Source of the DNA: Bolinopsis microptera
Taxonomy: Eukaryota > Ctenophora > Tentaculata > Lobata > Bolinopsidae
Length of the DNA: 64,000 nucleotides
Direction: 5' to 3'
Assembly (NCBI RefSeq): GCF_026151205.1
Contig: NC_087082.1
Coordinates: 10,980,901 to 11,044,900, forward strand
The notes under the pieces are model-generated. The model was not told where the DNA came from and did not search any database. It worked only from the letters and a program-made list of their open reading frames with translations. Below are positions 6,853 through 62,600 of the stretch, one piece after another (the first letter of the stretch is position 1; every line of letters starts with the position of its first letter). The position numbers and the translations under genes are program-made.

Positions 6853-9800
6853 ATGGACCGTACTGAGTTAGCAGCGCGTGCGCGACTCGCAGAGCAGGCG
6901 GAGAGGTACGATGACATGGCTAACTACATGAAGAAAGTTACCCTCGCAGCTAAGGAAGGTAAGATTTTTAAATGACCGTACTGATTTCTTGGACAAAAAG
7001 TAACCAATATTTTTGAGTTTCATTAATCGGTTAACGGTATGGTGCCTGCATGGTTCTAGATTTTGTCCCCTCTGATCATTTTTTTACACCGATTTCAAGA
7101 ACGTAAAGCAGATTTAGTAGGATGATCGGATGTTGTGGTATAGGTAGTTATTCTTGAATGTTCTGAGTTGGGAACTGCTTCCTTCATTAAACACAACAAC
7201 CCTCTCTCATATTGAACACTGGCTCCACAGTCATCACTCTACCACAAGTTATGCACCAGTGGCATGTTAGTGGTAGTCTTGGCCTGTAGATTGTCAACAG
7301 GGCCGTGGTTAATACAGTTCTTTTTTATACACAACATAATTTTGGTAACTTCAAACAAATATTTGTTCATAAAATCTGAACTGATAAAAAAGTCCATAAT
7401 CTCGGTTTTTCAACACTAAGTCTCGCTTGAATGACTTAAATGTACATCTTTGTTGAGTTGTTGGGTATATTTTAATGTCGAAGCGTGTAATAAATGTTAG
7501 AATTTATTTATTTATTTATAACATGAAATTTTAAGTTTTAAAAAGATACATCTCGAAAGTTAAAACCTTTATAAGGTAGGAATTATTAATATCGTTGGCT
7601 TACGACAAGCTGTTTTTGCTTTCGTAACCATGATTTCTTTCTGTTGTTGCTATCCATCATCTTGGTAAATAATGAAGTTATACATATTTTCTAGCTGGTT
7701 TTAGGTCATCAAGTAATCAATAAGATTCCAAATTCTTTCGTTCTTCCAAAACCCAAAAATCAGCTATTCTTCACTTTCCTTATCTTTTCCTTTTTCTCTC
7801 AACGTATAACTTCCTGGTAACTTGTCTCTCGTCTCATTATTCAAGAATAGTTCTTTTCACACTACGTCAACTTGGGGGCCACTCACTTTCAAGTAACGAG
7901 TTTGAAATCAGTGTACAATTTTAGTGAGGTCAGCAGAACGTGACACACTACTGCAATGTACGTGACATACTACTACGATGTACGTGACGTGACATACTAC
8001 TACTATGTACGTGACATACCACGCAGTATGAGATAATGTACCACCACTTTGGTAGCCTCAAGTTGTTTAAATTTCCCAGCACTCCGTCAAATATTTATCA
8101 GATCTGTATCAAGGATGTGTAGACATTCCAATTTTAAAATTGTATGAATTCTACACACGTCTAAAGTATTCTAAATGCATTGCATTCCAACGAATGAGCT
8201 TCCAACATTTCTTTCAACATTGAAAACTGTAATTATACATACATAATATTACATCTTATAGCATGATGATGTTTCTTTTTTAGAATTTCGGTACCAAACA
8301 GCTGGAATGACTTTCTCTGTCATTTGCTTCTGTTTATATGGGAAATATTCACCATTTTTATGTGCATATTTAAGCGATATTTTGTAGGATTAAATTACTG
8401 CTGGTCTACCAAGATTGGGGAATAATGTTATTCTATATAGATCGGGCGATAGGTACTCGATGTGTTTTGAAATTGAACATTCCATGATCCATCACACAAT
8501 AGTATGGAATTATGTCACGGAGCAGAACACTCTTAAAATTTTGAAATTAATTTCTTTTCTGAACTTGAACTAGAAATCATACTAACAACTTATTTTAACC
8601 GTGAAATAAAAATATAAAACGATGACAGTGAAAACTGAAACCACACTGACAGCAAAAATATTTCAGCTGGAGCTGGAGAATTATCAGCTGACGAGAGGAA
8701 CTACTTGAGTGTGGCTTACAAGAATGTGGTGGGAGCGAGAAGGAGCAGCTGGAGGGTAATAGGTAGGTCTCTCTGTCTGTCTGTCTGTCTGTCTGTCTGT
8801 CTGTCTGTCTGTCTGTCTGTCTGTCTGTCTGTCTGTATGTCTGTTTGTTTGTTTGTTTGTTTGTTTGTTTGTTTGTTTGTTTGTTTGTTTGTTTGTTTGT
8901 TTGTTTGTTTGTTTGTTTGTTTGTTTGTTTGTTTGTTTGTTTGTTTGTTTGTTTGTTTGTTTGTTTGTTTGTTTGTTGTTTTGTTATTTTGTTTGTTTGT
9001 TTTTTGTTTGTTGCAAACAGTTAAGTACAAAAACAGATATGGTATGTTCACCTAGCCTTCCTGACTCGACCTACACCGATTATGATTTATTTACAATTCT
9101 TACGCGGATTTCCGTCAGTACTCGCTGTAAGCTGTTAGTCGAATGATTATCTTTATCATAATGTCTACAAACAATTAATATTCCATGCGTACGGGTATAT
9201 GGCCCCCAGAATATAGGTGGCCCCCAAAATATAGGTCATGTTAGTGGATACAGTTCTAACCAAGATAAGCGATACTAATGGGATCTGTTACTGCTAGGTT
9301 GGAGTAAAACATGTAACTTATGTTTCTGGATAAAAATTTTGGACCTACATGAGGTATTTTGGTATATTTGGTCATGACAGCGAAAGATTTAAACGATGTT
9401 GTCATTTTCTAGAGGGGTAAATATGGCGAAAAATTGTCATGACAAAAATCTGTCCAACACATGCCATTAAGACTACTGGTATGAGTATAAGTATTATTTT
9501 AAGCTATCTTTTCATCGAGACATCTGCAAACTGACAATTTGGAAAAAAGTTATGGCCACCACAATTTTACGGGCCCCCAGAATATAGGTCTATACGACCC
9601 CCAGAATATAGGTTGGTCAAAAACCCTGAACATGCCCAAAACCATGCTTTGGGATGCTCTACTTGTAGCTACTAGTCTCCTGAACCCACATATCAAGTTT
9701 TATCAAAATTGGATAAAAATTGGCCGAGTTATGGGATAAAAACAAAAACCATATGCCCATATTTGGGCATACGCACCGAATTTGATCGATTTTGGTCCAT

Positions 9801-59621: not shown

Positions 59622-62600
59622 ATGGGTAACACCTTTTCACCTGAAGTTGGAAGGGCGAGATCTGGTCGAACCAGTCTACCTGCCACCAGACAACCACCAG
59701 ACAGCCCACTACCTGCCACCAGACAATCGCTGGAGATGGACGAGCTGAGAGGTACTGCAATTGACGATGTGTCAGGGGGATGGGTCCAGATGTCGCGGTC
59801 AGAGCTCGAGACCAGTTTGGAGACATTGAGTAAGTTGAGTTTTCTGTGGCATGGAGCTTGGTCGTGGTGATGATGTGCAGCATGTTTTTGAGTTACTGAA
59901 AATGTTTTTCACTACTTTTTGCTATTTCATTGCTTTTAACACCGAGAGCAAGCTGAAAGACCGCAATTAAACGCTTTTACTTTTGATTGTGACTTCGCCG
60001 ATATTATTTACTCGATTTAACCTAATAAAGAAATGTAGTCTTGAACTAGGTGTTGCGGAGGAAATAAAAATACAGTATATGTATGATTTAATATTTGCTT
60101 TGATACATATTAGGTTACCAATTTGTTGATTTATGACCATTTGTAACATGGCTAATGCGAAAAAGTTGTAATTGGTAATAATTTAGCAAATTTTTCTACT
60201 GACGATATTGAATTTGATGATATTCGGGGGATGGGTCACGATATCGCGATATGAGTTCGAAACCAGTTTGGAGACATTGCGTAAGTCGAGTGTCCTGTGA
60301 CATGGAGCTTGGTGGTGAGGATGGTAATGTGAAGCATGTTTATGAAGTTATGAGTATGAAATTGTGTTGAAAATGTTCTTTTTCTTTGCCGAAACTGTCG
60401 AAGGTGGAAAACTTTAAAATCAAAAATCCCCAAAATTGACGGCGATAAAGTCCTCCCGCTCTCCATCTATATCTCCTTTCTGGAAAAATGTCCCGTACCT
60501 TACTTATTTCTAGCATGGATCTAACAGCACCCACTTGAGTTGGGAGTTTGATTTTAAGGAACAAACTATTACTAACTGATCATTGTTATCTATCGTTGTG
60601 TGACCATTGACCATATCAATATCATATAATTCTGTTCTCGTCTCAGGACGAAGGATGAGTGAGGGACTGGGATTACATGACAGATACGACGAGATTCTCC
60701 GCTCTATCAGCCGTATATACCAGGTTTAACCCGAAGTATTTATTTACCTGACTTAAATCTCTGGTGGTTATAATCACTTGGTAACTGAGTATATTCGCCG
60801 GAGTGTATAATATGATAACTTGCTGTTTATTGCTTCAAGTTACTGACCGGGTTACTGATCAGAGCGAAGGAGACGTGGTCCAGTTCAAAAACTTGCTAAC
60901 GTTACTCAATAACGCCCTGACGACTACTTCCGTAGGTTTGTTTCTTTAATTATTTTTAAATTTTTAAGTTTTTTATTAATTAAAAATTAATTATTTTTTA
61001 CTAAGGAAGGCTCGGAAGTCCATGTTTGGATAACCAATGATTGAGCAAAATGGCCGTAATCCTGAAATCTCTAAATCAGTCAAAATTCAGTTTTAAGATG
61101 GTAGTTATCCCGTACCCGAATACTGAAGTATAAGTTAGCATGTCTTTGTTGTCTCGTAACACGTGATCTCTCTTATAATCAGATGACAGTATCTGGAGGA
61201 AGATGAACCGTTACAACACTGTTAATCAGATAAAAGAGTACATGTTCAACCATATGACGGACCCCTCAATACAGGTGACACAGTCTCCCAGTTAAACTAT
61301 GGATAATTATGAGCATTATAGATTGAACATGCTATTATATAATACAGGGTGGGCCAAAAGTCAGTGTGCAAACGTTGGGTCTTAAACCTCCGCCGTGTTT
61401 TATATTTGAGGGTTGTTGCTTTGCAGATGGTTTACTGTACCTACTGGTTCGAGGTTCCCGTCACCAAAATTTGAAAATTCGAATATTTCAGACCACGCCC
61501 ATTCAATATTAAAACACTTATATTGTTCTCCCCGAACATGCTAGATGTCTAATTTTTTCAGAGACGGTAGATCATTAAATGTTGCATATGATCTGAAAAT
61601 ATGAGGCAAAACGGATCAGAAATGACGAAGTTATCAAGCATTTTCTGTATCTCGTTAACAAAATTGACTGGGTGATTATGTGACACCGCGACACGACACC
61701 TTAATTGGGCAGCCTTCACGATTCCCATAATGTTTAACGGGGTAGTTAACGGGGTCACCTAATCACGTGATTAGGTAAACCAATCACCTGATCACACGTA
61801 ATGAATAACCTCGTTAAGGTTCATATCTCGGTCATCTGAGAAGCTAGAACTCTCTTTTTTTCAGGGCAAACGTAATTTAAATGGCCAAACACAATTCAAT
61901 AAAATTTGGCTCGATCTGATAAGCCAAACTATCAAATAAATGCGAAAATGAACCTTCTTTTGAAAAAAATGAACACAAATATGTTTCGATTTTACAAATT
62001 TCTCGAACCAGTGGTGGTAGAAAGTCATACCAGAACAAATTATTTCAATTTGGCACTCAGTGACTGAGCTATTAAGGCCAACGTTTGCACACTGACTTTT
62101 GGCCCACCCTGTATATATTTATTTTTACATTGTGCCTTCCTCGAAAATTGCTTTACCCTTGCACGATAACAAGACGCTCTTGAGTAAGTTCAATGTAGCT
62201 GCTCAAAACAGTTTACAGCTACTTACACTCCTCAGACATTCGGGTTCAGACTGTTCGGGAACATGTGCGACATGGACATGGGGATAAAACTGATCGTAGA
62301 TGAAAGCGTGTACTTGTGCCTGATCAGCACTCTCCAGCAGCCTCAGTATATGAACAACCCTGTTGTCATGGTCAGATTCTTCAGCTATGTCTTAATTCTC
62401 ACATTGTTTTTAATTGTATTTAGAATCCTGGTAATCAATGTTATTCTCAATTGTTAGTGTGTTGCAGTGTGATTGTAGTGTGATTGCATGTTATCTATCA
62501 GGCGGAGGGGTTCAGAGCGCTGGGAATGATCGCTAAAAAGAGTGACCACCACGGTGCCCTGATAAGCAAGCACAGGTGCAAATGGTGCAACCACGTGAGT

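What the first reader, a model, noticed from the sequence alone, without database searches (positions are those of the whole stretch)
8763..60350. Tandem repeats cluster at 5' splice sites across the window
Of roughly 48 introns I could place, six start with a tandem repeat at or within about 10 bp of the donor: 14-3-3 introns 2 and 4, STAT introns 4, 5 and 7, and MED18 intron 3. A seventh (myristoylated gene intron 1) holds a decayed duplicate of its donor region. The units are unrelated in sequence, so the common factor is position. I know of no family that does this. It suggests a donor-linked duplication process, such as slippage at R-loops or nicks near exon ends, that lengthens introns.
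Basis: partly seen in the sequence, partly recalled or inferred. Interest (0 to 1): 0.85.

Follow-up and report, generated by a model that had tools for sequence, protein, structure and literature searches.

The report
Splice-donor minisatellites in a comb jelly
In this stretch of a comb-jelly genome, short tandem repeats often begin right where an exon ends and its intron starts, in two cases copying the splice site itself many times, much like the "mirages" known from amphioxus.

Summary
Of 20 tandem arrays in 46 introns that I placed, six start at offsets -30, -21, +4, +4, +9 and +11 from a 5' splice site (0.63 expected; 0 of 20,000 random placements reached six). None ends within 11 nt of an acceptor. 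Two arrays (MED18 intron 3, STAT intron 7) repeat the exon-intron boundary itself, with a donor in nearly every copy.

One exists: amphioxus "mirages", minisatellite-like duplications of exon-intron boundaries. This is most likely the same kind of structure in a ctenophore.

Beyond the window support is limited. In a 250-kb sample donors carry about twice the expected arrays, borderline at best. Genome-wide, the full 9-base donor consensus sits in tandem arrays far more often than reversed controls, but I could not show that those arrays lie at exon ends, and two tests found no donor link. A donor-targeted duplication process is possible, not shown.

The parts
38431..38916 (+). MED18 intron 3 array: 44-nt unit (some copies 51), 30 nt of exon end plus 14 nt of intron start; 9 copies carry CAG|GTATTG, one CTG|GTATTG, the last CAG|GTTCAT
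   Evidence: TRF; register; donor scores
46909..47382 (+). STAT intron 7 array: 30-nt unit, 21 nt of exon end plus 9 nt of intron start; 15 of 16 copies keep a GT donor; one open frame (repeated IISLRDKVST) right through
   Evidence: TRF; copies, scores and frame
59775..59872 (+). MYR exon 1 end and intron 1 start, original copy (donor at 59830)
   Evidence: intron map
60226..60323 (+). decayed duplicate of the MYR exon-intron boundary, 451 nt downstream, 84% identical over 98 nt
40960..40978 (+). gene-5 intron 2: 1.9 copies of a 10-mer lying across the donor (weak, TRF score 31)
45829..45885 (+). STAT intron 4 array, 20-mer, starts at +4
46266..46381 (+). STAT intron 5 array, 12-mer TTGGTGGGTCTG, starts at +9
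8774..9012 (+). 14-3-3 intron 2 array, TCTG/TGTT tetranucleotide repeat, starts at +11
11988..12026 (+). 14-3-3 intron 4 array, 10-mer TAGTTTTATT, starts at +4
12320..12444 (+). continuation of the TAGTTTTATT array beyond a MITE-like element (12027-12320)
   Evidence: that the two parts were once one array is inferred

Best explanation
These are mirage-type minisatellites. A short tandem duplication arises across or just beside an exon-intron boundary and expands by ordinary minisatellite turnover (slippage or unequal exchange). Shown from sequence: two arrays and one or two small duplications copy the boundary itself, with a donor in nearly every copy. Inferred: the duplication is tolerated because splicing hides it. 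If the first donor is used, all later copies become intron; in STAT intron 7 use of a later donor would only add a multiple of ten residues. Duplications inside an exon would stay in the mRNA, and extra AG sites before an acceptor would compete with the true one, so donors are favoured over exons and acceptors. This does not by itself explain the excess over intron interiors: either the duplications start more often at donors, or donor-side copies are kept as backup or enhancer sites. That last step is open.
For: Six of 20 intronic arrays start at donors, 0.63 expected, none at acceptors. The units of MED18 i3 and STAT i7 consist of exon end plus donor plus intron start, so they were made in place. 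A junction duplicate in MYR i1 and a 10-nt one in gene 5. A new case in the random sample: L009 7435-7479, a 14-mer beginning at -3 of a predicted donor. Same anatomy as amphioxus mirages, for which RT-PCR suggested undisturbed splicing and length instability was seen (PMC3087553 passages). Genome-wide, triples of MAGGTRAGT 935 vs 49 reversed and MAGGTATGT 1043 vs 6; as clusters 13 vs 1.36 expected and 9 vs 1.17 expected.
Against: Four of the six window arrays are intron-only and their units do not clearly derive from the donor (P 0.21, 0.046, 0.85, 0.06). Units of 113 random-sample arrays show no donor enrichment (1 vs 3 reversed, 3.2 expected from shuffles); the window's 25 units show acceptor-like scores above reversed ones (P 0.02, same call). 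20 C1 loci with 14-nt-spaced GTRAGT pairs have no good coding exon upstream. The sample excess is borderline and not significant with stricter exons. No transcript or population data.
Confidence: 0.72

Rival explanations
1. Donor-targeted mutation: transcription- or splicing-linked breaks or R-loops at exon ends make tandem duplications there at a raised rate, apart from any selection.
For: Excess over intron interiors in the window, which mere tolerance does not explain. The full 9-base consensus matters genome-wide: triples per single 1043 of 7504 for MAGGTATGT against 3386 of 75508 for GTATGT in a non-donor context.
Against: No mutation or break data. Random-sample arrays show no donor motif excess. 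Amphioxus mirages also hit 3' boundaries.
Confidence: 0.22
2. Selection keeps donor-side arrays because they help splicing: extra donors, or G-rich or U-rich enhancers just downstream of the 5' splice site.
For: Intron-only arrays are G-rich (STAT i4, i5) or T-rich (14-3-3 i2, i4), types recalled as splicing enhancers (not tested). 15 of 16 STAT copies keep a GT donor.
Against: Donors of array introns are no weaker than others (mean 4.71 vs 4.68, P 0.96). High copy identity may simply mean a young array.
Confidence: 0.12
3. The motif itself, not splicing, is unstable: GT-rich words such as GTAAGT or GTATGT expand wherever they lie.
For: 20 of 20 C1 loci examined for 14-nt-spaced GTRAGT pairs lack a good upstream exon.
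Against: With non-donor bases in front, GTATGT shows only a 2-fold excess (3386 vs 1657) against 1043 vs 6 for the full consensus. Four of six window arrays do not carry the donor motif as their unit.
Confidence: 0.12
4. Chance and selection of the window by the reader; genome-wide there is little or no donor bias.
For: Post hoc finding; five of the six arrays are in two genes. Sample excess only about 2-fold, P 0.05-0.29 over six settings.
Against: 0 of 20,000 placements reached six. Two units contain the junction. Donors exceed acceptors in the sample too.
Confidence: 0.1
5. The arrays mark recently gained introns made by tandem duplication of an exonic AGGT segment.
For: Such intron gain is described (potato RdRp, abstract and passages of PMC4974935), and the amphioxus globin paper proposes it for mirages.
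Against: By eye the intronic part of the MED18 and STAT units does not match the start of the next exon, as the simple model needs (sequence; no alignment was run). The next exon begins with unrepeated sequence.
Confidence: 0.06

Closest known systems
Amphioxus 'mirages' (Adh3, globin, TnC, PGBD5; PMC3087553 and PMC3902484, passages seen)
   Same: Minisatellite-like tandem repeats that span an exon-intron boundary, in unrelated genes, with unrelated units (10-160 bp there, 30-98 bp here) and splice signals in many copies.
   Different: There both 5' and 3' boundaries are hit; here only donors in the window (0 arrays at acceptors). Here four arrays are intron-only, starting at +4 to +11. Splicing and instability were tested there, not here. 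Different phylum.
[quoted passage not shown] Rogers model as cited there)
   Same: Tandem duplication that carries splice signals and changes intron structure.
   Different: Creates a new intron from duplicated sequence; here the existing introns are lengthened and no new exon-derived acceptor was seen.
Ordinary intronic microsatellites and minisatellites
   Same: Turnover by slippage or unequal exchange is presumed; 14-3-3 i2 is a plain tetranucleotide repeat.
   Different: Position at the donor and, in two cases, the splice junction as the unit.

Membership tests
Mirages (boundary minisatellites) | Tandem repeat unit spans an exon-intron boundary | tested here: met
   MED18 i3 and STAT i7; MYR i1 as a single decayed duplicate. 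Not met for the four intron-only arrays
Mirages (boundary minisatellites) | Many copies hold a usable-looking splice signal | tested here: met
   15 of 16 STAT copies; 11 donors with CAG or CTG before GT in MED18
Mirages (boundary minisatellites) | Occurs in several unrelated genes of the species with unrelated units | tested here: met
   MED18 and STAT, with MYR as a duplicate; L009 in the sample is a predicted gene
Mirages (boundary minisatellites) | Both 5' and 3' boundaries affected | tested here: inconclusive
   0 of 20 window arrays at an acceptor; 1-2 of 98 predicted acceptors in the sample, not above chance. Reported as possible, not required, in amphioxus
Mirages (boundary minisatellites) | Normal splicing despite the repeats | not testable with these tools
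   no transcripts held
Mirages (boundary minisatellites) | Length instability between alleles or in soma | not testable with these tools
   one haplotype only
Intron gain by tandem duplication | Intron sequence and acceptor derive from a duplicated exonic segment | tested here: inconclusive
   judged by eye not to fit MED18 i3 and STAT i7 (sequence); no alignment run, and older decayed cases cannot be excluded

The most novel reading that the evidence does not exclude
Ctenophores have a genome-wide, donor-directed tandem-duplication process: exon ends are preferred birthplaces of minisatellites, perhaps through transcription- or splicing-linked DNA damage, giving well over a hundred arrays built on the full 5' splice consensus and steadily lengthening introns.
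Probability: 0.22. Interest if true: 0.8.

Novelty: new variant of a known kind. Interest (0 to 1): 0.52.

Why it matters
The papers I saw describe mirages in amphioxus only. Boundary minisatellites in a ctenophore, with a donor bias, would mean that they recur in distant animal lineages. They offer a concrete route to longer introns, spare donors and in-frame protein repeats (STAT), and a natural test of why duplications collect at exon ends. I found no report for ctenophores in the library searches (related searches: 9, 12, 54, 55); the library lacks most subscription papers.

Tried and rejected
GTRAGT pairs at 14-nt spacing looked like donor arrays. The listing, capped at 100 places, gives 29 clusters on C1 by my count; I fetched the first 20. 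The exon-end score just before the first copy was 5.1 or less in all 20 (lowest P 0.20), while three quarters of the window donors scored 14 or more (that score's null is contaminated by real exons and the window was in the training set). Rejected as proof of exon-end location.

The donor-motif test on array units of the random sample was negative. The scramble GTGMATRGA gave 10 matches and its reverse 531; the reverse includes AGGTAAGTG, so I did not use it as a control. AAGGTAAGT triples, 244 vs 0, come mostly from two long repeat regions among the listed places. The first gene-finder runs failed or were spoiled by repeat ORFs; the masked, window-trained version found 37 of 46 window donors among 71 calls on that strand. 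The 15622-15778 array, donor-like on the minus strand, follows what looks by eye like an eroded retroelement fragment, not a live exon. Weaker donors as the cause: no difference.
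Full report
WHAT THE WINDOW IS. The window is C11:10980901-11044900 of a 264.65-Mb genome in 232 contigs. Contigs C1-C13 (lengths) sum to about 258 Mb, 97.5%. A glutamate receptor of this genome matches the Mnemiopsis receptor ML032222a best in the PDB (184.6 bits over 110 of 110 residues). Bolinopsis microptera has 13 scaffolds with 97.23% of the bases and a k-mer size near 254 Mb (passages of PMC10232365); Mnemiopsis has 247.97 Mb and a karyotype given as 13 (start of abstract, search listing, PMC11797021). 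So it is a ctenophore, most likely a lobate such as Bolinopsis; the species is inferred. Of eight exons given to Pfam, six matched: 14-3-3, NOL10, Med18, STAT linker, BTB (below its cut-off) and a MOZ/MYST acetyltransferase; two STAT exons had no match. The other gene names rest on my reading.

OBSERVATION. I placed 46 introns by reading frame and splice consensus. TRF at score >=50 gives 20 arrays in them. Six start between -30 and +11 of a donor, against 0.63 expected; 0 of 20,000 placements reached six. No array ends within 11 nt of an acceptor, against 0.62 expected.

ANATOMY. There are two classes. In MED18 intron 3 and STAT intron 7 the unit is the splice junction: 30+14 nt and 21+9 nt of exon and intron. 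In STAT 15 of 16 copies keep a GT donor with score 4.1 or more. In MED18 nine copies carry CAG|GTATTG and two more carry variants. The STAT array is one open frame, so use of a later donor would add whole decapeptides; the MED18 unit brings a stop. MYR intron 1 holds one decayed 98-nt copy of its junction, and gene 5 intron 2 a 10-nt duplication across its donor. The other four arrays (14-3-3 i2 and i4, STAT i4 and i5) are intron-only, starting at +4 to +11; their units do not clearly derive from the donor region. The 14-3-3 i4 array is split by a MITE-like element with 28-nt inverted ends. Array introns are longer (median 920 vs 202 nt, P 0.014), and their donors are not weaker (P 0.96).

BEYOND THE WINDOW: SAMPLE. 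I ran a small gene finder, trained partly on the window (37 of 46 window donors found, 71 called on that strand), on 25 loci of 10 kb taken at spaced places. It gave 38 introns with both flanking exons over score 6; several look doubtful. One clean new case is L009 7435-7479, a 14-mer starting three bases before the donor. With exon score >=3 and TRF >=50, 6 of 104 donors have an array starting nearby (2.45 expected from shifted positions, P 0.04) and 3 of 105 acceptors (2.34, P 0.43); with exon score >=5, 4 of 76 (1.6, P 0.07), and with >=8, 2 of 52 (0.97, P 0.27). A narrower rule at six settings gave donor P values of 0.12, 0.29, 0.05, 0.22, 0.095 and 0.12, and acceptors below expectation each time; the best setting was 7 of 97 donors (3.32 expected) and 1 of 98 acceptors (3.42) (Fisher P 0.03). 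Some of the six donors are doubtful, such as a coding repeat in L014 and a repeated gene-like element in L030. So the sample points the same way, weakly, and the rate is lower than in the window.

BEYOND THE WINDOW: WHOLE GENOME. Motif counts need no annotation. Three MAGGTRAGT at spacings of 12-40 nt occur 935 times, against 49 for the reversed motif; singles are 10,382 and 8,307. MAGGTATGT gives 1,043 to 6, singles 7,504 and 4,215. Long arrays inflate such counts, and only 100 places are listed, so I clustered the listed places: 13 clusters in the first 48 Mb against 1.36 expected from the 6 control clusters of the genome, and 9 in the first 29 Mb against 1.17. Some clusters may be copies of one family: those at C1:1998053 and C2:19851449 share a unit, and the last three C2 places share a 12-nt period. 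GTATGT with non-donor bases before it gives 3,386 triples to 1,657 reversed from 75,508 and 76,233 singles, a 2-fold excess. By hand count of its listing that is 13 clusters in 14 Mb from about 4,000 singles, against 9 clusters from about 820 singles for MAGGTATGT. The acceptor motif TTTYCAGR gives 509 to 221; one array makes up 57 of its 100 listed places.

RESULTS AGAINST. Units of 113 random-sample arrays show no donor enrichment (1 at score >=5, 3 reversed, 3.2 expected from shuffles), and the window's 25 units show a slight acceptor-like excess over reversed ones (P 0.02). The 20 C1 loci fetched for the looser GTRAGT pair show no good exon end upstream. The genome-wide excess is therefore one of donor-consensus arrays, not of proven exon-end arrays.

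EXPLANATION. The exon-spanning arrays must have been made in place, since their units contain the local exon end. Amphioxus mirages have the same anatomy; there RT-PCR suggested undisturbed splicing, and length and somatic instability were reported (passages of PMC3087553; passage of PMC3902484; the original Adh paper is not held). I read the finding as mirage-type minisatellites in a ctenophore. That splicing hides the copies, and so makes donors a tolerated site, is inferred. It does not explain the excess over intron interiors; a donor-linked origin or a retained splicing benefit would, and neither is shown.

VERDICT. A real and locally strong pattern of a known kind, in a new phylum and with a donor bias. 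That it is general in this genome is likely but not proven.

Noticed in passing
window 12027-12320: MITE-like element inside the 14-3-3 intron 4 array: 28-nt inverted ends (96% complementary) and an inner 36-nt perfect inverted repeat at 12211-12283; flanks look like a TTA target duplication by eye.
   Followed up: partly
window 15622-15778: 13-mer array in 14-3-3 intron 6 that carries a near-perfect donor (CAG|GTAAGC) on the minus strand, next to what looks by eye like an eroded retroelement fragment.
   Followed up: partly
window 12774-13166: Uninterrupted (CA)n of 196 units in 14-3-3 intron 4.
   Followed up: no
window 43300-44420: Minus-strand gene, by eye pentraxin- or laminin-G-like, nested in STAT intron 1 (no domain search run); nested genes are reported as common in the ctenophore Hormiphora (passages of PMC8527503).
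   Followed up: no
window 23040-28690: LINE-like open frames, by eye endonuclease and reverse transcriptase, interrupted by about 2 kb of other sequence; a further retroelement-like stretch at 47490-49170 lies in STAT intron 7 (no domain search run).
   Followed up: no
window 62882: Probable GC-AG intron in the myristoylated gene (intron 7, AAG|GCAAGA).
   Followed up: no
window 9190-10850: Several direct and inverted copies of a GGCCCCCAGAATATAGGT-like word in 14-3-3 intron 2, seen by eye.
   Followed up: no
window 3602-3729: In-frame 27-nt coding repeat in the MOZ/MYST acetyltransferase exon.
   Followed up: no
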